A stretch of 64,000 nt of DNA from Actinoplanes utahensis (GTDB taxonomy: Bacteria; Actinomycetota; Actinomycetes; Mycobacteriales; Micromonosporaceae), in the NCBI RefSeq assembly GCF_016862455.1, contig NZ_BOMZ01000105.1, forward strand, positions 1 through 64,000. The letters run 5' to 3'. Positions 1,354-32,404 of this stretch are shown in pieces. The notes below the pieces were generated by a model. That model was not told the DNA's origin and made no database searches. It saw nothing but the letters and a program-made list of their open reading frames with translations. The first letter of the stretch is position 1. The number at the start of each line of letters is the position of its first letter. A program made the position numbers and the translations under genes.

Positions 1354-1382
1354 CCAGCCGTCACTTCGGCTTTCGCCCAGCC

Positions 1383-1760
1383 CTCGTTCCGGCCCCAGCC
1401 CTGCTCTGGCCCAGCGCCGTTTCGGTTCGGGCCCTCGTTCTGGCTGCAGCCTCGCTTTGGCTTGGGCTCTCGTTCCGGTCCCGGTCCCGTTCTGGTTCGG
1501 ACCCCCGTTCTGGCTGCAGCCCCGCTTTGGCTCCGGCTCTCGTTCCGGCCCCAGCCCTGCTCTGGCCCAGCGCCGTTTCGGTTCGGGCCCTCGTTCTGGC
1601 TGCAGCCTCGCTTTGGCTTGGGCTCTCGTTCCGGTCCCGGTCCCGTTCTGGTTCGGACCCCCGTTCTGGCTGCAGCCCCGCTCTGGCTCCGGCCCTCGTT
1701 CTGGCTGCAGCCCCCGCTCTGGCCCCGGCTCTCGTTCCGGCCTCAGCCCCGCTCTGGCGG
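1383..1760 (+). repeat. 156-bp tandem duplication built from shorter CTCGTTCCGG-type units
   Basis: Two almost identical 156-bp units lie head to tail at 1383-1538 and 1539-1694; both begin CTCGTTCCGGCCCCAG. A partial third, more diverged unit runs to about 1760. Each unit contains shorter submotifs (CTCGTTCYGG, TGGCTGCAGCC) every 25-50 bp. The period is 52 codons, which keeps long open frames on several strands, but the translations are low-complexity and resemble no protein. I treat it as intergenic satellite-like DNA. Confidence 0.85.
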
Positions 1761-2095: not shown

Positions 2096-4114
2096 ATGCG
2101 ACTGACGATTCTGGGTGGCGGCGGGTTCCGGGTTCCGCTGGTGCACCGGGCGCTGCTCGCCGACCGGCGGCGGACCGGCATCACCGAGCTGGTCCTCCAT
2201 GATGTCGACAAGGACCGGCTGGACGCGATCGGCCGGGTGCTGGACGCCCAGGCCCGGGACGTACCGGACGCTCCCGCCCTCGTCACCACCACCGACCTGG
2301 ATACGGCGGTGACCGGCGCGGACTTCGTGTTCTGCGCGATCCGGGTGGGCGGCCTGCACGGGCGCGTGGTCGACGAGCGGGTGGCGCTCGCGGCGGGCGT
2401 GCTGGGGCAGGAGACGGTCGGGGCGGGGGGTATCGCGTACGGCTTGCGGACCGTCCCCGAAGCCCGCCGCATCGCCGAACGTATCGCCCGGCTCGCCCCG
2501 GGCGCCTGGACGATCAACTTCACGAACCCGGCCGGTCTGGTCACCGAAGCGATGGCCGGAGTCCTCGGCGACCGCGTGATCGGCATCTGTGACTCGCCGT
2601 CCGGTCTGGTCGACCGGGTGGTGCGGGCTGTCGGCGCCGATCCCGCGTCGGTGCGTGTCGACTACGCCGGTCTCAACCACCTGGGCTGGCTCTACGGCAT
2701 CCACCCCCTCACCACTGCGACCATCACCCCAACCGCCACCATCGGCCCAACCGCCACCACTGCAACCGCCACCGCCACCACCCCAACCGCCACCATCACC
2801 CCCACTTCCAGCCGCATATCCGCGCGCGGTCGCGCTTCCGCCAGCGTTGTTGATCTTGGGCGATTTGCCACCGAATCCGGTGGAGAATCGTCCAAGATCC
2901 GCGGTGTAGGTGGTGCAAGCGGTGCAGGTGCTGGCCGTGCCAGCGGTGTTCGCGGTGGCAGCGGGGCGGGTGCCAGCGGTGTCGGCGGTGCCAGCAGTGT
3001 CGGCGGTGCCAGCGGTGCGGATGCCAGCAGTGCCAGCGGTGCCAGCGGTGCCAGCGGTGCCAGCAGTGTCGGCGGTGCCAGCGGGGCGGATGCCGGCGGT
3101 GCCAGCGGTGGCACCGGGGCGGGTGCCAGCAGAATCGGCGGTGGCAGCGGTGCGGATGCCGGCGATGCCGGTGGCCCCGATGGTGTCGGCGGCGCCGCTG
3201 GTGCTGTCGGTGCGACTGATGCTCGCGGCACCGGTGGTACCAGTGGTGGTGTGAGTACTCCCGGTGTGGGTGGTGCTGTCAGCGCGGGTAGTGCGGTTGG
3301 TGTTGGTGCCGACCGTGTCGGTGGTGCGGTTGGTGTTGGTGCCGGTGGCGTTACCGGGGGTGCTGGTCGTGCCGGGTGGGGGGAGGCCGGAGGACTGCTC
3401 GGCGGGTTGCTGGCGGACGACGAGCGGGTGGAGTCGTTCGAGGAGGGGCGGCTCTTCGGGGCCGGGCTGCTTCGCGAGCTCGGAGCCGTACCCAATGAGT
3501 ATCTGCACTACTACTACGATCCCGCCGGAACCCTCGCCGCCGTCCGGGACGCCGCGCGGACCCGCGGCGAGTTCCTGCTGGACCAGCAGAGTCACTGCTA
3601 TGCCGAGATCCGTTCGCCGGCCCGCGATCCGCTCGACGCCTGGCTGGCGGCGTGGCGCGAGCGCGAGGCCACCTACATGGCCGAGAACCGGGAGCTCACG
3701 GGCGCCGGCGAGCGGGAGCACGACGAGTCCCGGCCGGCCGGTTACGAGGGTGTCGCGCTGGCGGTGATGCGCGCGCTCGCCCGTGACGAGCCGGCGACCC
3801 TGATCCTCAACGTCCGTAATCGGGGCACGATCGCCGTTCTGGACGACGATGCGGTGGTGGAGGTCCCCTGTCTGGTGGACGGCCGCGGCGCGGTCGCGCA
3901 GCGTGTCGCGCCGCTTCCGGCGCACGGCACCGGGCTGGTCACGGCGGTCAAGTCCGCCGAGCGGTGGGTGCTCCAAGCGGTCACCACCGGGTCGAGAGCC
4001 GCGGCGGTACGGGCGATGGCCGCCCATCCGCTCGTCGGTTCCGAGCCGGTCGCGCGCCGCCTGATCGACGCCTACCGTGCCGAGCTTCCGGGACTCGCCT
4101 ACCTGCGCGGCTGA
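2096..4114 (+). CDS. GH4-family alpha/beta-glycosidase with a 220-residue low-complexity insertion
   Basis: A 672-residue protein related to family 4 glycosidases (6-phospho-beta-glucosidase type), which use NAD and a divalent metal. The NAD-binding N-terminus is clear (MRLTILGGGGFRVP). The CDSPSG motif (Cys165) and the GLNHLGW motif (His195) are the usual metal and substrate ligands. Family sequence resumes at LADDERVESFEEGRLFG and PNEYLHYYY. Family members are normally about 420-450 residues. Here residues about 204-425 (bases about 2705-3386) are a Thr/Pro- then Gly/Ala/Ser-rich insertion without stops. Removing it restores about 450 residues, so the insertion is in frame. It lies straight after the metal-binding motif, so whether the enzyme is active is unclear. 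The ATG at 2096 follows an AAGGGG. Confidence 0.8.
   Translation: MRLTILGGGGFRVPLVHRALLADRRRTGITELVLHDVDKDRLDAIGRVLDAQARDVPDAPALVTTTDLDTAVTGADFVFCAIRVGGLHGRVVDERVALAAGVLGQETVGAGGIAYGLRTVPEARRIAERIARLAPGAWTINFTNPAGLVTEAMAGVLGDRVIGICDSPSGLVDRVVRAVGADPASVRVDYAGLNHLGWLYGIHPLTTATITPTATIGPTATTATATATTPTATITPTSSRISARGRASASVVDLGRFATESGGESSKIRGVGGASGAGAGRASGVRGGSGAGASGVGGASSVGGASGADASSASGASGASGASSVGGASGADAGGASGGTGAGASRIGGGSGADAGDAGGPDGVGGAAGAVGATDARGTGGTSGGVSTPGVGGAVSAGSAVGVGADRVGGAVGVGAGGVTGGAGRAGWGEAGGLLGGLLADDERVESFEEGRLFGAGLLRELGAVPNEYLHYYYDPAGTLAAVRDAARTRGEFLLDQQSHCYAEIRSPARDPLDAWLAAWREREATYMAENRELTGAGEREHDESRPAGYEGVALAVMRALARDEPATLILNVRNRGTIAVLDDDAVVEVPCLVDGRGAVAQRVAPLPAHGTGLVTAVKSAERWVLQAVTTGSRAAAVRAMAAHPLVGSEPVARRLIDAYRAELPGLAYLRG
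2852..2899. repeat. Palindromic element inside the GH4 gene
   Basis: An imperfect 48-bp inverted repeat. The left arm begins GATCTTGGGCGATTTGCCAC and the right arm ends GAATCGTCCAAGATC, with about 22 bp per arm and a four-base centre. It is translated as part of the GH4 low-complexity insertion (VDLGRFATESGGESSKI). The same element occurs at 62552-62605 outside genes, so this is a dispersed repeat rather than a GH4 feature. Confidence 0.8.
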
Positions 4115-11360: not shown

Positions 11361-12596
11361 GTGATCGAAATAAGCGGTCTACGTAAAACGTACCGCTCGA
11401 AGAGGGGTTCCGTCGTCGCTGTCGACGGTGTCGACCTCAGCGTCGGCGAGGGCGAGGTCTTCGGTGTGCTGGGGCGCAGCGGAGCGGGCAAGAGCACCCT
11501 TCTCCGGTGCGTCAACATGCTGGAACGCCCGGACGCCGGCACCGTCACGGTCGGCGGGCTCGAGCTGACCGCGCTGGGCGGCAAGCAGCTGCGGATCGCC
11601 CGGCACGGCATCGGGATGATCCACCAGCACTTCGCGCTGCTGTCGTCGCGGACCGTCGCGGGAAACGTGGCGTTCGCCCTGGAGGTCATCGGCACCCCGC
11701 GGGCCGAGCGCAAGGCCCGCGTCGCCGAGTTGCTCGAGCTGGTGGGGCTGACCGATCGCGCCGAGGCGTACCCCGCTCAGCTCTCCGGTGGGCAGAAGCA
11801 GCGGGTCGGGATCGCCCGTGCGCTCGCCGCGCGGCCCCGGGTTCTGCTCTCGGATGAGGCGACCTCGGCGCTCGACCCGGAGACCACCGACTCGATCCTG
11901 CGGCTGCTGCTCGACCTCAACCGCCGGCTGGGGCTGACCATCCTGCTGATCACGCACGAGATGACCGTGGTGAAGCGGATCTGCACCTCGGCGGCGGTGA
12001 TGCGGGACGGGCGGTTCGTCGAGTCCGGCACGATCGCCGATCTGCTCCGCCGGCCCGACTCCGAGCTGGCTCGCGACCTGTTCCCGCTGGACACCGCCAC
12101 CACGGCGGTCCTCGGCTCCGCGCCGGTGCGTTCCGGACCGGCAGCGCCCCAAGGCGCGACGGCGAACGGCGTGACGGCGAACGCCGCGACGGCGAACGGC
12201 GTGACGGCGAACGCCGCGGCCACGACGGGCGCGGCGGCGGTCGGTGCGGCCACGACGGGCGCGGCGACGGTCGGTGCGGCCACGACGGGCCCGGCGACGG
12301 TCGGTGCGACGGCGGCTGGTGCGACGGCGGTCGGCGGGACGTCGGCCGGTGCGGGGGTCGCGGTGGCGGACGGTGAGGTCACGATCGTGGACATCACCGT
12401 CAGTGGGCCCGCGGCGGACGAGCCGATCATCGCCGAGCTGGCCCGGCGGTTCGACGTGGACGTGCGTATTCTCGGCGGGTCGGTGGAGACCCTCGCCACG
12501 ACGCGGGCCGGGCGCTGGCGTCTGGCCCTGCCCGGCCGGGCGGACGACAACCGGGCCGCCCTCGAATACCTGCGTGAGCGCGGAGTCACCCGATGA
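11361..12596 (+). CDS. metN: Methionine ABC importer ATP-binding protein
   Basis: A 411-residue ATPase of the D/L-methionine uptake system. Walker A (GRSGAGKST, about 39-47), the [15 protein letters not shown] signature and [12 protein letters not shown] are intact. The C-terminal NIL domain (about 335-411, [20 protein letters not shown]), which binds methionine and inhibits transport in this family, is also present. Between them is a low-complexity stretch of about 70 residues (repeats of [19 protein letters not shown]); typical MetN proteins are about 340 residues. The gene starts at GTG, overlaps metI by 4 bp, and is followed by metQ, which supports the call. I found no SAM riboswitch in the 136 bp upstream. 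Confidence 0.93.
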
Positions 12597-23492: not shown

Positions 23493-24812
23493 ATGCCCCC
23501 GTCCCCACGCCGCCGGTACGCCCTCGTGGGCGCCGGCGCACGGGCTGGAATGTTTCTCCGGGCGATCACCGGCGACCACGCTGACGTGGCCGAACTAGTC
23601 GCCATGGCGGACACCAACCCCGCACGGCCGGCCGCCCACAACAAGCGGCTCGGCACATCCGTCCCGGTCTACGACGCCGCCGACTTCACCGAGATGCTCA
23701 AGCGGGAACGTGTCGACGTCGTGCTGGTCGCCACCGTGGACCGCTACCACGACCACTACGTGGTGGCCGCGCTCGAAGCCGGCTGCGACGCCATCACCGA
23801 GAAGCCGATGACCGTCGACGCCGCCGGATGCCGCCGCATCCTCGACGCGCAGCGGCGCACCGGCCGCGACGTCCGCGTCACGTTCAACTACCGCTACAAC
23901 CCGCTGCACGAGGCGGTGAAACGGGTCATCGCGTCCGGTGAGATCGGCGAGATCGGCTCGGTGCACTTCGAGTGGCTGCTCGACGTGCGGCACGGCGCCG
24001 ACTACTTCCGCCGCTGGCACCGTGACAAGGCGAGCTCCGGCGGGCTGCTGGTGCACAAGGCCGGCCACCACTTCGACCTGGTCAACTGGTGGCTCGACGA
24101 CAGCCCGGCCCAGGTCTTCGCGGCCGGGCGGCTGTTCTTCTACGGCGATCAGGGACGGCGGCACGGCTACGCCCGCGACTACGAGCGGGCGCACGGCGCC
24201 GCCGACGCCGAGGGCGACCCGTTCGCGCTGCGGCTGGCCGACGAGCCGGCCATGAAGGAGCTCTACCTCGACGCCGAGGGACATGACGGCTACCACCGCG
24301 ACCGCAACGTGTTCGCGCCCGGCGTGACCATCGAGGACGACATGGCGGTGCTGGTCCGCTACGCCGGCGGGGCGTCGATGAGCTACCACCTCACCGCGTA
24401 CGCCCCGTGGGAGGGCTACCGGATCATGTTCAACGGCAGCCGCGGCCGGCTCGAGCTGGAAGTGGTGGAGAGCGACCACGTCGCCCCGTCGGCCGCCGCC
24501 GGCGTGAAGGGCGAGCCGGGTGCCGAGTCCACCGCCGAACAAGGCTTCAAGCGCCTGCTGGTCCGGCCGTTCTGGGCGCCACCGCGGGAGATCGCGGTGG
24601 ACGGCCTGTCCCGGCACGGCCACGGCGGCGCCGACGTGCGCATGCTCGCCGACCTCATCCGCCCCGGCGCCCCGGCCGACCCGCTCGGCCGGACCGCGAA
24701 CGCCGTCGACGGCGCCCGTGCCCTGCTGACCGGTCTGGCCGCCAACGAATCCCTGGCCCAGGGCCAGGCCATCCGCGTGCAAGACCTCCTAGATCTTGAG
24801 GAGATCAGGTGA
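23493..24812 (+). CDS. Gfo/Idh/MocA-family oxidoreductase (uronate locus)
   Basis: A 439-residue NAD(P)-dependent dehydrogenase. It has the Rossmann start YALVGAGARAGMF, the EKPMTVD motif with the conserved Lys (about 110-117), and a substrate domain with DxxxH-like residues in KAGHHFDLVNWW. It is longer than typical members (330-390), with an insert around GYARDYERAHGAADAEGDPF. The ATG follows GGAGGCGACGG, and a perfect LacI operator sits just upstream. Its stop overlaps the GTG of uxaC. The substrate is unknown; a sugar acid or unsaturated uronate derivative fits the context. Confidence 0.85.
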   Translation: MPPSPRRRYALVGAGARAGMFLRAITGDHADVAELVAMADTNPARPAAHNKRLGTSVPVYDAADFTEMLKRERVDVVLVATVDRYHDHYVVAALEAGCDAITEKPMTVDAAGCRRILDAQRRTGRDVRVTFNYRYNPLHEAVKRVIASGEIGEIGSVHFEWLLDVRHGADYFRRWHRDKASSGGLLVHKAGHHFDLVNWWLDDSPAQVFAAGRLFFYGDQGRRHGYARDYERAHGAADAEGDPFALRLADEPAMKELYLDAEGHDGYHRDRNVFAPGVTIEDDMAVLVRYAGGASMSYHLTAYAPWEGYRIMFNGSRGRLELEVVESDHVAPSAAAGVKGEPGAESTAEQGFKRLLVRPFWAPPREIAVDGLSRHGHGGADVRMLADLIRPGAPADPLGRTANAVDGARALLTGLAANESLAQGQAIRVQDLLDLEEIR

Positions 24813-26230
24813 CCGACGAGAACCATCTCTTTCCCTCCGAGCCGAACCAGCGGCAGATCGCGCGTGAGCTGTACCGGCACGCCAAGGACCTGCCGCTGAT
24901 CAGCCCGCACGGCCACGTCGACCCGCTGCTGCTCGCCGACGACCAGCCGTTCGGCGACCCGGCCCGGCTGTTCGTGGTCCCCGACCACTACGTCACCCGG
25001 ATGCTCGCCAGTCAGGGGATCCCGCCGGCGCGCCTCGGGGTGCCCAGTGTGGACGGCTCGGAGGTGGAGACCGACGGCCGGCGGATCTGGCGGCTGCTCG
25101 CCGAGAACTGGAGACTGTTCCGCGGCACCCCCTCCCGGCTCTGGACCGAGAAGGTGCTCGCCGACGTCTTCGGCATCGCGAAGACCTTGAGCGGGGGTAC
25201 GGCCGACGAGATCTACGACGAGCTCTGCGCCCGCCTGGCCGAGCCGGAGTACCGGCCGCGCGCCCTGTTCACCCGGTTCAACATCGAGGTGCTCGCCACC
25301 ACCGAGAGCCCCCTGGACGAGCTGCAGGCGCACGCCAAGCTGGCCGCCGACGGCTGGGGCGGCCCCGGAGGCCGGGTGATCACCACCTTCCGGCCGGACA
25401 ACCTGGTCGACCCGGACTGGCCGGGCTGGGCCGAGCGGGTCGCCCAGTTGGGCGAGCTGACCGGTCTCGACGTCGGCACCTACCCCGGGTTCCTGGCCGC
25501 GCTGCGCAGCCGCCGCCAGGCGTTCATCGAGGCCGGCGCCACCAGCTCCGACCACGGCCACCTGACCGCCGCGACCCTGGAGCTGTCCGACGCCGACGCG
25601 GCGGCGCTCTACCGCAAGGCGCTGGGCGGCGGCGCGGACGCGGCCGACGCGGAGGCGTTCCGGGCGCACATGCTCGTCGAGTTCGCCCGCATGTCGCTCG
25701 ACGACGGCCTGGTCATGCAGCTGCACCCCGGCTCGGTGCGCAACCACAACAAGGCGCTGTACGAGCGGCACGGGCGCGACACCGGCGGCGACATCCCGTC
25801 GGCCACCGACTACGTGCACGCGCTGCGGCCGCTGCTCGACGCGTACGGCACCGACCCGCGCCTGCGGATCGTGCTCTACACCCTGGACGAGACCACGTTC
25901 AGCCGCGAGCTCGCCCCGCTCGCCGGCGGCTACCCGTCGCTGTACCTCGGCGCGCCCTGGTGGTTCCTGGACAGCCCGGAGGGTCTGCGCCGGTTCCGGG
26001 AGACGGTCACCGAGACGGCCGGCTTCTACAACACGTCCGGGTTCGTCGACGACACCCGCGCGTTCTGCTCCATCCCGGCCCGGCACGACGTGGCCCGCCG
26101 GATCGACGCCGGATACCTCGCGAAGCTGGTCTCGCAGGGCACCCTGCCGCTCGACGAGGCCGCCGAGACCATCGCGGATCTGGCGTACCACCTGCCCAAG
26201 AAGGTCTTCCGCCTGGACGGGAAGGCATGA
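24809..26230 (+). CDS. uxaC: Glucuronate isomerase (uronate isomerase)
   Basis: A 473-residue amidohydrolase-superfamily enzyme that converts D-glucuronate to fructuronate and D-galacturonate to tagaturonate. The metal-binding HGH motif is in LPLISPHGHVDPLLLADD. Other family segments are LFTRFNIEVLATTESPLD, MQLHPGSVRNHN and the C-terminal GYLAKLVSQGTLPLDEA. Length matches UxaC (about 470). It starts at GTG overlapping the upstream gene's TGA. With the UxuB-like gene 64 bp downstream it supports uronic acid catabolism. Confidence 0.93.
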   Translation: MTDENHLFPSEPNQRQIARELYRHAKDLPLISPHGHVDPLLLADDQPFGDPARLFVVPDHYVTRMLASQGIPPARLGVPSVDGSEVETDGRRIWRLLAENWRLFRGTPSRLWTEKVLADVFGIAKTLSGGTADEIYDELCARLAEPEYRPRALFTRFNIEVLATTESPLDELQAHAKLAADGWGGPGGRVITTFRPDNLVDPDWPGWAERVAQLGELTGLDVGTYPGFLAALRSRRQAFIEAGATSSDHGHLTAATLELSDADAAALYRKALGGGADAADAEAFRAHMLVEFARMSLDDGLVMQLHPGSVRNHNKALYERHGRDTGGDIPSATDYVHALRPLLDAYGTDPRLRIVLYTLDETTFSRELAPLAGGYPSLYLGAPWWFLDSPEGLRRFRETVTETAGFYNTSGFVDDTRAFCSIPARHDVARRIDAGYLAKLVSQGTLPLDEAAETIADLAYHLPKKVFRLDGKA

Positions 26231-26294
26231 GGGAGCGAAGCGAGTTCATGCCTGACCATACTTGCGCTTCTGATTCCCGAGTGGGGGAAATGCC

Positions 26295-27755
26295 ATGACG
26301 GTGACCTACCGCCTGGACCGGGGCGCCCTGACCTCGATCGCCGCCGCCAGCCGGCCGGCCGTCGCGCCCGGCTCGGTCCGGCCCGGGATCGTCCACCTCG
26401 GACTCGGCGCCTTCCACCGGGCCCACCAGGCCGTCTTCACCGAGTCCGCGGTCGCGGCGTCCGGCGGCGACTGGGGGATCATCGGGGTGGCCCCGCGCTC
26501 CCGGGAGATCCTCGACAGACTGCGTGCGCAGGACGGGCTCTACAGCGTCCTCACCGTCGGCGGGGGAGAGGACCGGGCCAAGGCGGTCGGCATCCTGGCC
26601 GGGTTCGGCCACGCGGCGGGTGATCCGTACGGGGTGGTCGCCGCGATCGCCGACCCCGGTGTGCGGATCGTGTCGATGACGGTGACCGAGAAGGCGTACC
26701 GGCTCGACCCGGCCGGCCGGTTACTGCTCGACGACGTGCTGCGGGCCGAGCTGACCGGGGAGGCGCCGCCGGTGTCCGTGCCGGCTCTGCTCGTGCGGGG
26801 TCTGCTGCGGCGGCAGGCCGCCGGCGCCGGGCCACTGACCGTGCTGTGCTGCGACAACCTGCAGGGCAACGGCCCGCGCATCCGCGGCCTGGTCGAGCAG
26901 GCCCTCGACGTGGCCGGCGCGCAACTGCCGGACGGGGTGTCGTTCCCGGCCACCATGGTCGACCGGATCGTGCCCGCCACCAGCGCCGACCATCTGCGGC
27001 GCACCGCTCTCGCGCTGGGCGCCGACGACGCCGCGCCGGTCGTGGCGGAGCCCTTCACCCAGTGGGTGATGCAGGACGACTTCCCCGGCGGGCGCCCGGA
27101 CTGGGGCTCGGCGGGCGCGATCTTCACCGACGACGTCACGTCGTGGGAGAAGCTGAAGCTGCGGACCCTCAACTCGGTGCACTCGGCGTGCGCGTATCTC
27201 GGGGCGCTGGCGGGCCGCGAGCTGATCGCCGACTCCCTCGAACTGGCCGGGCTGCCCGCGCTGCTGCGCCGGTTCATCGCCGAGGACATCGCCCCGACCG
27301 TGCGGCCGCCGCAGGGCGTCACCGTGGAGGGTTACGGCGAGACCGTCCTGGAGCGTTTCGCCAACCGCGAGCTGGGCCACCGCAATCTGCAGGTGGCGAT
27401 GGACGGCAGCCAGAAGCTTCCGCACCGGCTGCTGGGCACCATCGCCGACCGGCGGCGGGCGGGCGCGTTCCCCGGGTGGGCGGCCTTCGTCCTGGCCGCC
27501 TGGATGCGCTTCGCGCGGGGGTACGCCGACTCGGGCGCCGCCCTCACCCTGGACGACCCGATGGCCGACCGGATCCGCGCGGCGCTCGCCGCCGCCCCCG
27601 ACACCCCGGCCGGCGTGGTCGGCGCGCTGCTCGCCCTGGACCAGATCTTCCCGCCCGCGCTGGCCGGCGACGACGAGCTGAAGCGCGAGCTGATCAAGTG
27701 GTACGGCGAACTGGAACGGCACGGCGCGGAGGCCACCGTCCGGAGTCTCGCATGA
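26295..27755 (+). CDS. Mannitol dehydrogenase-family protein, probable fructuronate reductase (UxuB-like)
   Basis: A 486-residue polyol/uronate dehydrogenase. The N-terminal NAD domain has IVHLGLGAFHRAHQAVFTE. The central motif VLCCDNLQGNG and the C-terminal catalytic region KLRTLNSVHSACAYLGALAG, which contains the conserved Lys and His, are intact. In uronate loci this family reduces fructuronate to mannonate (UxuB); the mannitol and altronate enzymes are close relatives, so the exact substrate rests on the neighbouring uxaC. GGGGGAAA precedes the ATG, and its stop overlaps the next gene by 4 bp. A mannonate dehydratase (UxuA) is not in the window. Confidence 0.85.
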   Translation: MTVTYRLDRGALTSIAAASRPAVAPGSVRPGIVHLGLGAFHRAHQAVFTESAVAASGGDWGIIGVAPRSREILDRLRAQDGLYSVLTVGGGEDRAKAVGILAGFGHAAGDPYGVVAAIADPGVRIVSMTVTEKAYRLDPAGRLLLDDVLRAELTGEAPPVSVPALLVRGLLRRQAAGAGPLTVLCCDNLQGNGPRIRGLVEQALDVAGAQLPDGVSFPATMVDRIVPATSADHLRRTALALGADDAAPVVAEPFTQWVMQDDFPGGRPDWGSAGAIFTDDVTSWEKLKLRTLNSVHSACAYLGALAGRELIADSLELAGLPALLRRFIAEDIAPTVRPPQGVTVEGYGETVLERFANRELGHRNLQVAMDGSQKLPHRLLGTIADRRRAGAFPGWAAFVLAAWMRFARGYADSGAALTLDDPMADRIRAALAAAPDTPAGVVGALLALDQIFPPALAGDDELKRELIKWYGELERHGAEATVRSLA

Positions 27756-28873
27756 CGACGCGGGTGGCGCTCATCGGTGCCGGAGGCCACGGCCTCTGGC
27801 ACCGGCGGGTGCTGCAACGGCTCTGGGACGCGGGCGCGATCAACGTCGTCGGCCTCTGCGACCGGCAGCCGGTGGAGCCGCACCCGGACGCCCCCCTCGA
27901 CGGGGTGCCGTTCTTCACCGATCACGGGGAACTGCTGTCCACCGTGTGGCCGGACGTGGTGGTGGTCTGCACACCCCCGCACACCCACCTGCCGATCGCC
28001 CTCGACGTCTTCGCCGCCGGCGCCGACCTGCTCCTGGAGAAGCCGCCGGTGATGTCGACGGCCGAGCACGAACGCCTGTCGTCGGCGGTCGCGTCCACCG
28101 GCCGGATCCTGCAGATCGGTTTCCAGGCTCTCGGGTCGGCGGCCCTGGCCGAGCTGTGCGTGGCCGCGCCGGCCGGCGACCTCGGGGTGTCCGGCGCCTG
28201 GTGGCGGCCGGACAGCTATTACCGGCGGACGCCGTGGGCGGGCCGGCGCAGCGTCGGCGGGCGGCCGGTGTTCGACGGTGCGCTGGTGAACCCGTTCGCG
28301 CACGCCCTCATGCAGGCGCTGGTGGTGGCCGGCTGCGCCGGGGCGGACTTCCGGCCGGAGCTGCTGGAGCTGGAACGGTACCGGTCCCGGGAGATCGAGA
28401 CCGACGACTCCACGTTCCTGCGGATCACCGGTGCGGGCGGGCGGCGGATCACGGTCGCGGTGACGCTCGCCTCGAAGGTGTTCATCGCCGGGGAGATCAG
28501 TGTCGGCGACGCCGTCCTGGAGTACCCGACCGACCGGCTGCGGCTGCCCGGCGAGACCGATTTCACCCACGTGCCGGGCCGGGCGGGTCTGCTGGAGAAC
28601 CTCCTCGAACACCGGAACGACCCGAAGGTCCCGCTGCTCGCGCCCCTGGACCGGACCGCCGGTTTCACGGCGGTGGCCGAGGCGATCGTGGCGGCGCCGG
28701 AGCCCGCGCGGATCCCGGACGGCTACCTGGAACCGCACCCGGACGGCGGCGGCTCCGTCGTGCCCGGTATCGACGAACTGGTCCGCGAGGTCGCCGGCAC
28801 CGGACGGCTCCCGTCCGAGATCGGCGTCCCGTGGTCCACCCCACCCCAGCGGGTGGAGTTGCGGCGCATATAA
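27752..28873 (+). CDS. Second Gfo/Idh/MocA-family oxidoreductase
   Basis: A 373-residue NAD(P)-dependent dehydrogenase. It has the Rossmann start VALIGAGGHGLWHRRVL, the LLLEKPPVMS motif with the catalytic-site Lys, and the substrate domain with GALVNPFAHALMQAL. It is translationally coupled to the UxuB-like gene (ATGA overlap). It is not closely similar to the first oxidoreductase of the operon, so the two probably act on different sugars or sugar acids. A role in side-chain sugars of pectin is possible. Confidence 0.85.
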   Translation: MTTRVALIGAGGHGLWHRRVLQRLWDAGAINVVGLCDRQPVEPHPDAPLDGVPFFTDHGELLSTVWPDVVVVCTPPHTHLPIALDVFAAGADLLLEKPPVMSTAEHERLSSAVASTGRILQIGFQALGSAALAELCVAAPAGDLGVSGAWWRPDSYYRRTPWAGRRSVGGRPVFDGALVNPFAHALMQALVVAGCAGADFRPELLELERYRSREIETDDSTFLRITGAGGRRITVAVTLASKVFIAGEISVGDAVLEYPTDRLRLPGETDFTHVPGRAGLLENLLEHRNDPKVPLLAPLDRTAGFTAVAEAIVAAPEPARIPDGYLEPHPDGGGSVVPGIDELVREVAGTGRLPSEIGVPWSTPPQRVELRRI

Positions 28874-28972
28874 CGGCCGCACTCCACACGTGGAAGAAGC
28901 GGGGCGGGCGGCTTTTCACCGGGCGGCTCGTCCCGTACACGGAAAGGGTTTCGCTACTAACGAAAGGAACTG

Positions 28973-30292
28973 ATGCATACCGTGCGAACCGCTCTCGCAG
29001 CGGCCATCGGCCTCGTCCTCACCGCCGGTGTCGCCGCCATTCCCGCCTCCGCGTCCGCGGGCATTCCGTCCGCGGCCCGGGACGTATTGCCGGCCAATGA
29101 CGGATGGGCTGCCGCGACGACCGGGACCACCGGTGGCGCCGCAGCCGACGACGCGCACGTCTTCGTGGTGCGCAACCGCGCCGAACTGGCCGCCGCACTC
29201 GCCGGCGGAACCGATCCGACACCCCGGATCGTGCTGATCCAGGGCACCATCCGGGCCAATGAGGACGACGCCGGGAATCCGCTCTCGTGTGACGACTACG
29301 CGGATCCGGCCTATTCTCTGGACGCCTATCTGGCCGCCTACGACCCGGCGGTGTGGGGACGCGCCACCCGGCCGAGCGGGCCTCTCGAGGAGGCGCGGGT
29401 ACGGTCGGCGCGCAACCAGGCGGCCCGGATCCAGTTCAAGGTCGGCGCGAACACGACGATCTACGGCCTGCCCAACGCCCGGCTGGTCGGGGCGAACCTG
29501 CTGGTCCAGAACGTCGACAACGTGATCGTGCGCAACGTGCGCTTCGAGGACGCGGCCGACTGCTTCCCGCTGTGGGATCCGACCGACGGATCGCAGGGCA
29601 ACTGGAACTCCGCCTACGACCTGGTGACCCTCACCGGCGCCACGCACGTGTGGGCGGATCACAACACCTTCAGTGACGGCGAGAACGTCGACGCGAACCA
29701 GCCGCTCTATTTCGGACGGCCGTACCAGGTGCACGACGGGGCGCTCGACATCATCCGGGCGTCCGATTACGTCACCGCCTCCTGGAACGTCTTCTCCGAG
29801 CACGACAAGACGATGCTGATCGGTTCGACCAACACGGTCGGCGCGGATGTCGGAAAACTGCGGGTCACCCTGCACCACAACCGTTTCGCCAATGTCGGGC
29901 AGCGTGTCCCGCGGGTGCGTTTCGGGCAGGTCGACGTCTACAACAACTACTACTACCAGACCGATGAGGACACCTATTCGTACTCGTGGGGCGCGGGCGT
30001 CTACTCGGCCATCTACGCCGAGAACAACTTCCTGCTCCGCAGTGCGGATCTGGCTCTCGAGGACTTCGTCTACGACTGGGGTGGCACGGCGATCACCGAG
30101 ATCGGCACGCTGACCCGGGTCGGTACCGGGCCGGTGCGGGCGGTCAGCCTGCTCGCCGAGTACAACGCCACCCACGATCCGGATCTGGGCACGGACGCCG
30201 GATGGACCCCCGTCCTGCGTGCCGGGCCGGTCACCCCGACGGCGCAGGTGCCGACGGTGGTCGGCAAGGGCGCCGGAGCCGGGCGGATCTGA
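28973..30292 (+). CDS. Secreted pectate lyase (PL1-like)
   Basis: A 439-residue secreted beta-helix enzyme that cleaves polygalacturonate by beta-elimination with calcium. The signal peptide is about 28 residues (LAAAIGLVLTAGVAAIPASASA). PL1 features are the calcium-site region HVWADHNTFSDGE, DGALDIIRASDYVTASWN, the stacked asparagines, and catalytic-region arginines in QRVPRVRFGQVDVYNNYYY. GAAAGGAAC precedes the ATG. It lies 99 bp behind the uronate operon. Released oligogalacturonides would feed the ABC importer and UxaC pathway of the same locus. A strong hairpin follows the stop. Confidence 0.93.
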   Translation: MHTVRTALAAAIGLVLTAGVAAIPASASAGIPSAARDVLPANDGWAAATTGTTGGAAADDAHVFVVRNRAELAAALAGGTDPTPRIVLIQGTIRANEDDAGNPLSCDDYADPAYSLDAYLAAYDPAVWGRATRPSGPLEEARVRSARNQAARIQFKVGANTTIYGLPNARLVGANLLVQNVDNVIVRNVRFEDAADCFPLWDPTDGSQGNWNSAYDLVTLTGATHVWADHNTFSDGENVDANQPLYFGRPYQVHDGALDIIRASDYVTASWNVFSEHDKTMLIGSTNTVGADVGKLRVTLHHNRFANVGQRVPRVRFGQVDVYNNYYYQTDEDTYSYSWGAGVYSAIYAENNFLLRSADLALEDFVYDWGGTAITEIGTLTRVGTGPVRAVSLLAEYNATHDPDLGTDAGWTPVLRAGPVTPTAQVPTVVGKGAGAGRI

Positions 30293-30333: not shown

Positions 30334-30380
30334 CTACGCTCCACTCATTCCCGACATTTCCATAATGCGGAGTGAGCCCC

Positions 30381-30971
30381 ATGAATCATGCCGCCCGCCG
30401 TCTCGCGGCGCTGTCCGCAGCCACCCTCCTCCCCCTCGCCGGCCTCGCCGTCCCCGCCTCCGCCGCGGCGATCCGGGTCCCGCCCGGCGCCGGCTCCCCG
30501 GCTCTGGAGAAGATGCGCCGCGAGGTCGGCGCCGACGTCCCGTGCTGGCGCAACATCACCATCAGATCCACGGCCAACGGCCGGTACGTCACCACCGAGA
30601 TCGGCTGGGACGGCGGTGACCACGGATCGTTGCGGGCCCGGTCGACGACCGCGGGCCCGTGGGAGAGGTTCACCGTCTGCCGCGATCCCGAGTCCGGCGT
30701 GACCCGGATCCGGGCACAGGCCAACGGTGACTTCGTCTCGGCCGAACTGGACAACGCCGGCGCCAGGTACGGACTGCTGCGTGCCCAGGCCGACAAGGTC
30801 GGTGGCTGGGAGCGGTACTACTCCAACAGCCCGCCCGGCGAGCCGTTCTCGTTCTACGCCCGGCACACCAGGCGCTGGGTGTCCGCCGAGGTCACGTTCA
30901 CCGGCAACCAGTACGGGATCCTGCGTGCGCGGGCCACCAGTGTGGGCGCCGAGGAGACCTTCGTATGGTGA
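30381..30971 (+). CDS. Secreted beta-trefoil (fascin-like) protein
   Basis: A 196-residue exported protein with a signal peptide of about 29 residues (LSAATLLPLAGLAVPASA). The mature part holds three similar units of about 40 residues, each with a pattern like R-x-x-x-x-x-x-(Y/F/W)-V-(T/S)-(A/T)-E followed by G-x-L-R-A: NGRYVTTEIGWDGGDHGSL, NGDFVSAELDNAGARYGLL and RRWVSAEVTFTGNQYGIL. This matches a three-lobed fascin-type beta-trefoil, often a carbohydrate- or protein-binding fold. GGAG lies eight bases before the ATG; a GTG at 30372 is the alternative. Being next to pectate lyase suggests, without proof, cell-wall polysaccharide binding. Confidence 0.75.
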   Translation: MNHAARRLAALSAATLLPLAGLAVPASAAAIRVPPGAGSPALEKMRREVGADVPCWRNITIRSTANGRYVTTEIGWDGGDHGSLRARSTTAGPWERFTVCRDPESGVTRIRAQANGDFVSAELDNAGARYGLLRAQADKVGGWERYYSNSPPGEPFSFYARHTRRWVSAEVTFTGNQYGILRARATSVGAEETFVW

Positions 30972-31095
30972 GCTTCCTTTAAAGATCCAGCCCTCGAACC
31001 TTAAGTTTCTCTTTATTTCGATCTAGGGTGATCCGGCGCTGGGAGCGTTCCCGTATGGACCGATCGAGAAGGTGGTCCAACAGGAAGGCACGCAG

Positions 31096-32331
31096 ATGAA
31101 GCGCTACCGGAGCTACCGGAGCAACGCTGGGGGATCCGACATCCGGCGCTGGCGGGTCGCCGGTGTGGCGGGTGTCGCGGTGGCCCTGGTCGGTGTGGGA
31201 CTGGGTGTCGCGGCCGCGGCCGACAGCCCCGTGCCCACGGTGAACTGCCCGGCGGTGGCCGGCAAGCTGGGCGCGGTCCCGGCATCGGCGCAGTCGGAGA
31301 TCGCGCGCAACCTGCAGCTGCTGAACACGCAGATCCAGGAGGCCAACAACCGGATCCGCACCAGCCAGGGCCAAGGTGGCCCGAACTTCATCCAGAACGC
31401 GATCCTCGGCCCGCTGAAGGACAAGCGGTTCGCCACGATCAACCGGATGGAGACCGCGATCGGCCGCACCCTCGCCAAGCCGAACCTGAACGCCGAGGGC
31501 CTCTCCGGCTGCACCCTGAACGCCAACGGCGGCGGCAACGCCTCGCCGGAGCCGAACCAGGTGCCCGCCGCCTCCGTCTCCGCCGGCGCCGCCGCGGCCG
31601 GGAACGTCGGCACGATCGCCTGCCCGGACGTGGTCATCAACGTGGCGGTCCCGGCGCAGGCGAAGGCTGAGATCGACCGGAACCTGGCCCTGTTGCAGAC
31701 CCAGATCAACGAGGCCGACGCCCGCCTCAAGAGCTCCGTCGGCCAGGGCGGCGCCAACTTCGTGCAGAACGCGATCCTCGGCCCGCTGAAGGACAAGCGC
31801 TTCGCGACCATCAACCGGATGGAGACGGCGATCGGCCGTAACGCCGCGAAGCCGAACCTGAACGCCGAGGGCCTGTCGACCTGCTCGGTCGACGCCGCCG
31901 GTGGCGGTGGCGCCGCGGCCCAGCCGACCGCGGCTCCGGCCACGCAGGCCCCGGCCGGCAACGGCGACGCCGGCAACAACGGCAACAACCAGGCCGCGGC
32001 CAGCCGGAACACCGGCAATGTCGGCATCAACGACGGCACCGCGCAGGTGGACTGCCCGAACGTCGCGATCAACGTGGCGGTCCCGGCGCAGGCGAAGGCC
32101 GAGATCGACCGGAACCTGGCTCTGCTGCAGACCCAGATCAACGAGGCCGACGCCCGGATCAAGAGCACGGCGTTCCAGGGTGGCGTGAACTTCATCAACA
32201 ACGCGATTCTCGGCCCCCTGGCGGACAAGCGTTTCGCGACCATCAACCGGATGGAGACCGCGATCGGGCGCAACGCCGCCAAGCCCGACCTGAACGCCGA
32301 GGGCCTGTCCGCCTGCAACCTGAACAAGTGA
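31096..32331 (+). CDS. Exported three-module repeat protein of unknown function
   Basis: A 411-residue protein. An N-terminal hydrophobic segment (residues 21-41, after RRWR) acts as signal peptide or anchor. Three nearly identical modules of about 88 residues follow at 51-139, 176-263 and 320-407, each opening with CP and closing with a Cys 87-88 residues later. The core repeats VPAQAKAEIDRNLALLQTQI, NAILGPLKDKRFATINRMET and AKPNLNAEGLS. Ala/Gly/Pro/Asn-rich linkers separate the modules. The one-Cys-at-each-end design suggests one disulfide per module outside the cell. I recognise no named family. AGGAAGG precedes the ATG. Module DNA is also very similar, pointing to recent duplication. Confidence 0.75.
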   Translation: MKRYRSYRSNAGGSDIRRWRVAGVAGVAVALVGVGLGVAAAADSPVPTVNCPAVAGKLGAVPASAQSEIARNLQLLNTQIQEANNRIRTSQGQGGPNFIQNAILGPLKDKRFATINRMETAIGRTLAKPNLNAEGLSGCTLNANGGGNASPEPNQVPAASVSAGAAAAGNVGTIACPDVVINVAVPAQAKAEIDRNLALLQTQINEADARLKSSVGQGGANFVQNAILGPLKDKRFATINRMETAIGRNAAKPNLNAEGLSTCSVDAAGGGGAAAQPTAAPATQAPAGNGDAGNNGNNQAAASRNTGNVGINDGTAQVDCPNVAINVAVPAQAKAEIDRNLALLQTQINEADARIKSTAFQGGVNFINNAILGPLADKRFATINRMETAIGRNAAKPDLNAEGLSACNLNK

Positions 32332-32354
32332 CCTGTCACGTCTGATCAACGCCA

Positions 32355-32382
32355 CAGCCCGGCCGCACCAGCGGCCGGGCTG
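32355..32382. terminator. Bidirectional terminator
   Basis: A perfect 12-bp stem (CAGCCCGGCCGC with GCGGCCGGGCTG) and ACCA loop, between the stop of the three-module protein (+) and the stop of the coiled-coil protein (-). Confidence 0.88.
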
Positions 32383-32404
32383 TCTCGTACCCCCGGCTTC
32401 GCGC

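What the first reader, a model, noticed from the sequence alone, without database searches (positions are those of the whole stretch)
31096..32331. Exported protein with three near-identical Cys-bounded modules of unknown family
Three modules of about 88 residues, each starting with CP and ending with a Cys at constant spacing, follow a signal or anchor. The conserved cores (AKAEIDRNLALLQTQINEAD, RFATINRMETAIGR) are almost invariant. I know no domain with this signature. The protein follows a secreted beta-trefoil protein and the pectate lyase, suggesting a surface or matrix role.
Basis: seen in the sequence. Interest (0 to 1): 0.6.

Follow-up and report, generated by a model that had tools for sequence, protein, structure and literature searches.

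The report
Undescribed disulfide-closed helical hairpin module
A secreted actinobacterial protein is built from three copies of a small helical module that the searched domain libraries do not describe, and relatives of that module sit where a cellulose-binding module sits on related cellulases, so it is probably a new kind of attachment module for extracellular proteins.

Summary
ORF 31096-32331 (411 aa) has a signal-like N-terminus and three modules (residues 47-141, 172-265, 316-409), each with one Cys pair 87-88 residues apart. No module match reached a curated cutoff in Pfam or NCBIfam; PHROGs and PDB sequences gave nothing credible.

The module is not private to this protein. Of 158 distinct module-bearing ORFs collected here, 103 are modules only; 24 carry DUF1996, 12 a GH5 cellulase, 14 an undescribed ~180-residue domain, 5 are other. 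Of 30 related GH5 enzymes, 22 have CBM2 N-terminal to the catalytic domain, 4 have the module there, 1 has ricin lectin/fn3, 3 have nothing; module-bearing GH5 domains form one supported clade. Of 20 DUF1996 proteins without the module, 5 carry CBM6/35 or F5/8-type domains.

Best reading: a mobile targeting module that binds an extracellular polysaccharide or wall polymer, the window protein being a trivalent form without cargo. Binding is inferred, not shown. The pectate-lyase neighbourhood holds in one Actinoplanes group only and is weak evidence.

The parts
31082..31088 (+). Shine-Dalgarno-like AGGAAGG
   Evidence: read directly
31096..32331 (+). gene for the three-module secreted protein, 411 aa
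   Evidence: orthologues about 89% identical
31096..31221 (+). signal-peptide-like region, residues 1-42, possible cleavage after AAAA42; RRW before the hydrophobic stretch
   Evidence: seen in the translation; no signal-peptide predictor available
31234..31518 (+). module 1, residues 47-141, Cys51 and Cys139
31519..31608 (+). linker 1, 30 residues, Ala/Gly/Asn/Pro-rich
31609..31890 (+). module 2, residues 172-265, Cys176 and Cys263; AF2 model pLDDT 93, pTM 0.83
31891..32040 (+). linker 2, 50 residues, Ala/Gly/Asn-rich
32041..32322 (+). module 3, residues 316-409, Cys320 and Cys407
32354..32383 (+). 13-bp perfect inverted repeat with a 4-nt loop after the stop codon, possible terminator without T-run
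   Evidence: not reported by the terminator scan, which demands a T-run
28973..30292 (+). neighbouring secreted pectate lyase (PF00544), context only
   Evidence: E 1.2e-44; conserved neighbour in one Actinoplanes group
30372..30971 (+). neighbouring secreted protein, possibly beta-trefoil, context only
   Evidence: FRG1-like E 0.0089 and Fascin E 0.042, both below the curated cutoff

Best explanation
The module is an undescribed, secreted, non-catalytic attachment domain of filamentous actinobacteria. It is an about 94-residue two-helix hairpin whose N- and C-terminal ends are stapled by one disulfide. It is shuffled as a unit, with low-complexity linkers, onto extracellular proteins (GH5 cellulases, DUF1996 proteins and another undescribed domain). 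By analogy with a carbohydrate-binding module it most likely holds its cargo on an extracellular glycan: a plant polysaccharide or the producer's own wall or matrix. The window protein is a trivalent form without cargo that would bind multivalently and could coat or cross-link that polymer. Shown: sequence, repeats, distribution, architectures, the place shared with CBM2. Predicted: fold and disulfide. Inferred: glycan binding, multivalency, localisation.
For: Architectures among 158 distinct module ORFs: 103 modules-only, 24 DUF1996, 12 GH5, 14 GHFHT domain, 5 other; Pfam confirms 24 DUF1996 and 12 cellulase among the 50 with a long tail. Place test: of 30 GH5 relatives, Pfam counts CBM2 in 22 and ricin lectin with fn3 in 1; per protein, a CBM2-like match lies N-terminal to GH5 in 22 (L195-L217 except L215), the module lies there in 4 (L188-L191), and 3 (L192-L194) have neither; no Pfam CBM in L188-L194. 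The module-bearing GH5 domains form one group, 16 of 16, support 100/99. DUF1996: 10 of 30 loci have the module and no other Pfam family; of the other 20, L225, L227 and L228 have F5/8 type C and L218 and L222 have CBM6/35. Confident compact fold. The Cys pair and the same core residues are kept in modules-only, GH5 and GHFHT proteins. Purifying selection. A sortase-like motif near the C-terminus in only 1 of 155, so attachment, if any, would have to come from the module.
Against: No binding experiment exists. The only strongly conserved aromatic residue is F51, unlike the aromatic platforms of most CBMs (recalled). The conserved polar residues may serve helix packing. In the GH5 tree the module group joins enzymes with no accessory domain, not CBM2 enzymes, so a direct exchange with CBM2 is not shown and the module may have been added for another reason. 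15 of 20 module-less DUF1996 proteins have no known CBM, and in L222 the CBM6 copies are C-terminal, so a shared place is not shown for DUF1996. The module of the DUF1996 class is less conserved. No structural neighbour of meaningful score.
Confidence: 0.5

Rival explanations
1. Self-association or docking module: hairpins pair with hairpins, so that the trivalent protein is a scaffold which gathers GH5, DUF1996 and other module-bearing proteins, roughly as a cohesin-dockerin system does.
For: A modules-only protein and a module-tagged protein coexist in one genome, for example G000, G014, G029 and G035. Helical hairpins readily form bundles, and the structural neighbours include designed helical homo-oligomers, all at uninformative Z.
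Against: The window's own genome has only one other module protein by profile and no DUF1996. One module type serves all roles, without separate scaffold and dock types. The monomer is predicted confidently by itself.
Confidence: 0.2
2. Rigid disulfide-stapled spacer or stalk: the module merely holds domains away from the surface and has no ligand.
For: Simple fold, low-complexity linkers and varying copy number; no aromatic platform.
Against: 103 of 158 ORFs have modules and nothing else, so there is no cargo to space; polar residues Q32, R64 and R70 are kept in all four architecture classes.
Confidence: 0.17
3. Pectin-degradation accessory protein specific to the neighbouring pectate lyase and uronate genes.
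For: A related pectate lyase is in 10 of the 79 loci clustered: nine with modules-only genes, window included, and L088, where it follows a GH5 fusion gene directly.
Against: Not conserved outside that group: 25 Streptomyces loci have an argH-like gene (named by eye) in the flank instead and 14 Paractinoplanes/Actinoplanes loci other neighbours.
Confidence: 0.1

Closest known systems
CBM2 (PF00553), as found on related GH5 cellulases
   Same: Discrete non-catalytic domain N-terminal to the catalytic domain with a low-complexity linker between
   Different: CBM2 is a beta-sandwich with surface tryptophans (recalled); this module is predicted all-helical, has one conserved aromatic and no Pfam match
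DUF1996 proteins (PF09362)
   Same: Carry the module in 10 of 30 loci examined
   Different: DUF1996 is the cargo; it exists without the module in 20 of those 30
Wall-binding domains such as LysM, SLH or PG_binding_1 (recalled)
   Same: Small, often repeated modules on secreted proteins (recalled)
   Different: None of them is among the Pfam matches of the window protein; one disulfide-stapled hairpin
Cgt of Actinoplanes sp. SE50/110, a small secreted protein made of a single CBM20 (PMC7275007; start of the abstract seen in the listing)
   Same: Precedent in the genus for a secreted protein consisting only of a binding module
   Different: Different module; one copy instead of three

Membership tests
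Any described domain family (Pfam, NCBIfam, PHROGs) | match of the module above the curated cutoff | tested here: not met
   no module match at or above a cutoff; best Pfam for the window protein TcfC, 13.7 bits against 29.4. PHROGs has no curated cutoff; best E 0.012
Known PDB sequence families | sequence-profile match to a solved chain | tested here: not met
   only an alphabody at E 0.74
Known PDB folds | clear structural match | tested here: inconclusive
   no Foldseek match at E <= 0.001; VIA Z at most 7.7, which by the tool's note may mean only a common arrangement
CBM2 | PF00553 match | tested here: not met
   none in the window protein or in the four module-bearing GH5 proteins L188-L191
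Carbohydrate-binding modules as a functional class | discrete non-catalytic domain attached by a linker to carbohydrate-active enzymes | tested here: met
   N-terminal to GH5, where CBM2 lies in 22 of 30 relatives
Carbohydrate-binding modules as a functional class | demonstrated carbohydrate binding | not testable with these tools
   needs a binding assay
Disulfide-closed helical hairpin | two antiparallel helices with the two cysteines adjacent | tested here: met
   prediction only: helices 16-42 and 48-76, DSSP bridge residues at 4 and 93 beside Cys5 and Cys92, pLDDT 93; no Cys-Cys distance was measured

The most novel reading that the evidence does not exclude
A previously undescribed class of all-helical carbohydrate- or wall-polymer-binding module, spread among filamentous actinobacteria and shuffled among cellulases, DUF1996 proteins and modules-only multivalent proteins, that holds in one cellulase lineage the place usually held by CBM2.
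Probability: 0.4. Interest if true: 0.68.

Novelty: new variant of a known kind. Interest (0 to 1): 0.52.

Why it matters
It gives a definable unit to many actinobacterial secreted proteins (543 matching stretches in one capped scan), of which the modules-only kind gets no domain call, and it gives a new handle on DUF1996. If the module binds a glycan, it adds an all-helical, disulfide-stapled fold to attachment modules; the GH5 relatives with CBM2, with the module and with neither make the function directly testable by exchange.

Tried and rejected
Viral contigs: no relative in two scans. Apparent 1033-1040 aa Amycolatopsis fusions (L134, L149) and a 775-aa one (L082) were rejected by eye: the long N-terminal parts look like open frame outside the gene, before a plausible Met start of a modules-only (L134, L149) or module-plus-GHFHT (L082) protein. 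The weak third hit in the own genome (C33, E 9.4e-4) is not found by the module profiles and was dropped. The structure prediction of the ~180-residue GHFHT domain was poor (7 rows, pLDDT 53.6), so no fold search was made with it; its profile found no credible PDB chain (best E 0.37). Structural neighbours of the module: none stands out from the helical background. Promoter scan: nothing. Plasmid records: three Streptomyces matches, two without annotation and one annotated as DUF1996 protein. Gene neighbourhood as a general guide was rejected because neighbours differ between groups. Module tree: copies are neither purely position-specific nor purely species-specific (39 label changes, least possible 2, shuffled mean 71.4), read as repeated duplication or homogenisation; few columns, so weak. 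Tat export was considered because of RRW near the N-terminus (54 of 103 modules-only, 12 of 12 GH5) but not tested. Literature: the searches listed no paper that by title or abstract start describes the module; beyond listings I saw only term passages of PMC12691653 and PMC13390465, and a term look-up without hits in PMC13118837. Supplements and most subscription papers were not searchable, so absence from print is not shown. PMC12691653 reports GH5 enzymes GimA and GimB that degrade the sporangium matrix of Actinoplanes missouriensis and have a galactose-binding-like, not this, accessory domain.

Limits of the counts: classes come from motifs and were checked by Pfam only for the 50 with a long tail; 'distinct' means distinct sequence, so near-identical orthologues count separately. 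Eleven module ORFs touch an end of their locus, among them three counted as one-module proteins (L112, L122, L141), and L139 and L154 appear frameshifted, so copy numbers are minima. Three ORFs with masked runs (two in L030, one in L114) were left out, but the L114 catalytic domain is in the tree. One search looked at only 11 of the 30 GH5 loci; one search repeated the module search on all 30. In the first look at DUF1996 loci 20 of 30 were caught; one search has all 30.

Full report
The gene. Frame 31096-32331 encodes 411 residues. The ATG follows an AGGAAGG run. The first 46 residues have a basic stretch, a hydrophobic run and an AAAA site, as a signal peptide has; this is read by eye. Three modules follow at residues 47-141, 172-265 and 316-409, separated by 30- and 50-residue linkers. 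Each has two Cys, 88, 87 and 87 residues apart. Module 2 is 70% identical to module 1 and 81% to module 3. From the first module on, dN/dS is 0.22-0.39 against eight orthologous loci, of which L033 and L077 may be one record. The dS between modules 2 and 3 is 0.42, more than the 0.21-0.35 between species in the same call, so that duplication probably predates these species.

No known family. Nothing reached a curated cutoff for the window protein in Pfam or NCBIfam, nor for the module in other proteins; PHROGs gave nothing better than E 0.012. A profile of 18 modules found no solved chain better than E 0.74.

Fold. AlphaFold2 on module 2 with 53 other modules gave pLDDT 93.0 and pTM 0.83: helices 16-42 and 48-76, a short helix 86-89, and bridge residues at 4 and 93. 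These lie beside Cys5 and Cys92, so the ends seem to meet and a disulfide is plausible; I had no coordinates and measured no distance. Foldseek found nothing at E <= 0.001 and VIA-align gave Z up to 7.7, to a designed helical oligomer and other helical proteins, which says little.

Distribution. Matches occur in 36 of 60 genomes, own included; 35 of the 36 in the window's genus. In a family draw 59 of 150 genomes and 11 of 44 genera match; in a phylum draw 8 of 296 genomes and 3 of 199 genera. For many genomes only part of the candidates was scored, so these are lower bounds. None was found in viral contigs.

Architectures. Of 158 distinct module ORFs, 103 have modules only (9 with one, 42 with two, 52 with three; some are cut or frameshifted, so these are minima), 24 DUF1996, 12 GH5, 14 a domain marked GHFHT, 5 other. 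Pfam finds DUF1996 in 24 and GH5 in 12 of the 50 with a long tail, and nothing that marks the module. The window's own genome has one further module protein, of the GHFHT kind.

Place test on GH5. The GH5 domain of L062, whose protein carries the module, was searched in 150 family genomes; 96 matched at 1e-60. I examined the 30 loci returned. Pfam finds GH5 in 30, CBM2 in 22, ricin lectin and fn3 in one. Protein by protein, 22 have a CBM2-like stretch N-terminal to GH5, 4 (L188-L191) have the module there, 3 (L192-L194) have neither, and L215 is the remaining one, by its sequence the ricin/fn3 one. No protein has both. In a tree of 42 GH5 domains the 16 with the module form one group (100/99), which joins the three without accessory domain (98/87 and 100/100); the CBM2 enzymes form the other side (89/84). 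So the module looks gained once, in a lineage separated from the CBM2 enzymes; a direct exchange is not shown.

DUF1996. PF09362 was found in 20 of 148 class genomes and not in the own genome. Of 30 loci, 10 have the module and no other Pfam family. Of the other 20, L225, L227 and L228 have an F5/8 type C domain and L218 and L222 CBM6/35; fifteen have nothing known. Four of the five have it N-terminal, L222 C-terminal. This is weaker support than GH5.

Conservation. In 304 distinct modules C5, P6, V8, P15, L26, Q32, A36, F51, L60, R64, R70 and C92 are kept at 85% or more in all four classes; N25, E35, R39, N54, K63 and R77 as well in modules-only, GH5 and GHFHT proteins but at 42-83% in the DUF1996 class. 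This suggests a shared role, but packing can explain many of these residues.

Context. A related pectate lyase is in 10 of 79 loci: nine with the modules-only gene, window included, and L088, where it follows a GH5 fusion gene. The beta-trefoil-like neighbour is in 7. Twenty-five Streptomyces loci share an argH-like gene (named by eye) in the 6-kb flank and 14 Paractinoplanes/Actinoplanes loci others. The neighbourhood supports a pectin link in one group only.

Conclusion. Shown: an undescribed, shuffled domain of signal-bearing proteins with two near-invariant cysteines, alone or attached to carbohydrate-active and other domains. Predicted: a stapled hairpin. Inferred, at about even odds: an attachment module for an extracellular glycan or wall polymer, the window protein being a trivalent binder.

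Noticed in passing
window 24809-30292: A run of genes that looks, by eye, like uronate catabolism (a glucuronate isomerase-like and a mannitol/fructuronate dehydrogenase-like protein) ends in the pectate lyase: a possible pectin-use cluster upstream of the gene.
   Followed up: partly
window 30372-30971: Secreted protein with weak FRG1/fascin resemblance (E 0.009-0.04, below cutoff), plausibly a beta-trefoil; relatives in 7 of 79 clustered loci, window included.
   Followed up: partly
L057:5101-6099 (C-terminal part), L110:6340-6876 and similar: An undescribed ~180-residue C-terminal domain with RGHFHTACR and GDGSHR motifs that look metal-binding; no Pfam, NCBIfam or PHROGs match above cutoff in the members scanned, and the AlphaFold2 model is poor.
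   Followed up: partly
L073:5703-7016: A module protein with long Asp/Ala repeats and a degenerate second module that has lost both cysteines, in a genome of another family.
   Followed up: no
window 32354-32383: Perfect 13-bp inverted repeat directly after the gene, without a T-run.
   Followed up: partly
window 1369-1758, 2912-3160, 12153-12353: Long GC-rich tandem repeat arrays.
   Followed up: no
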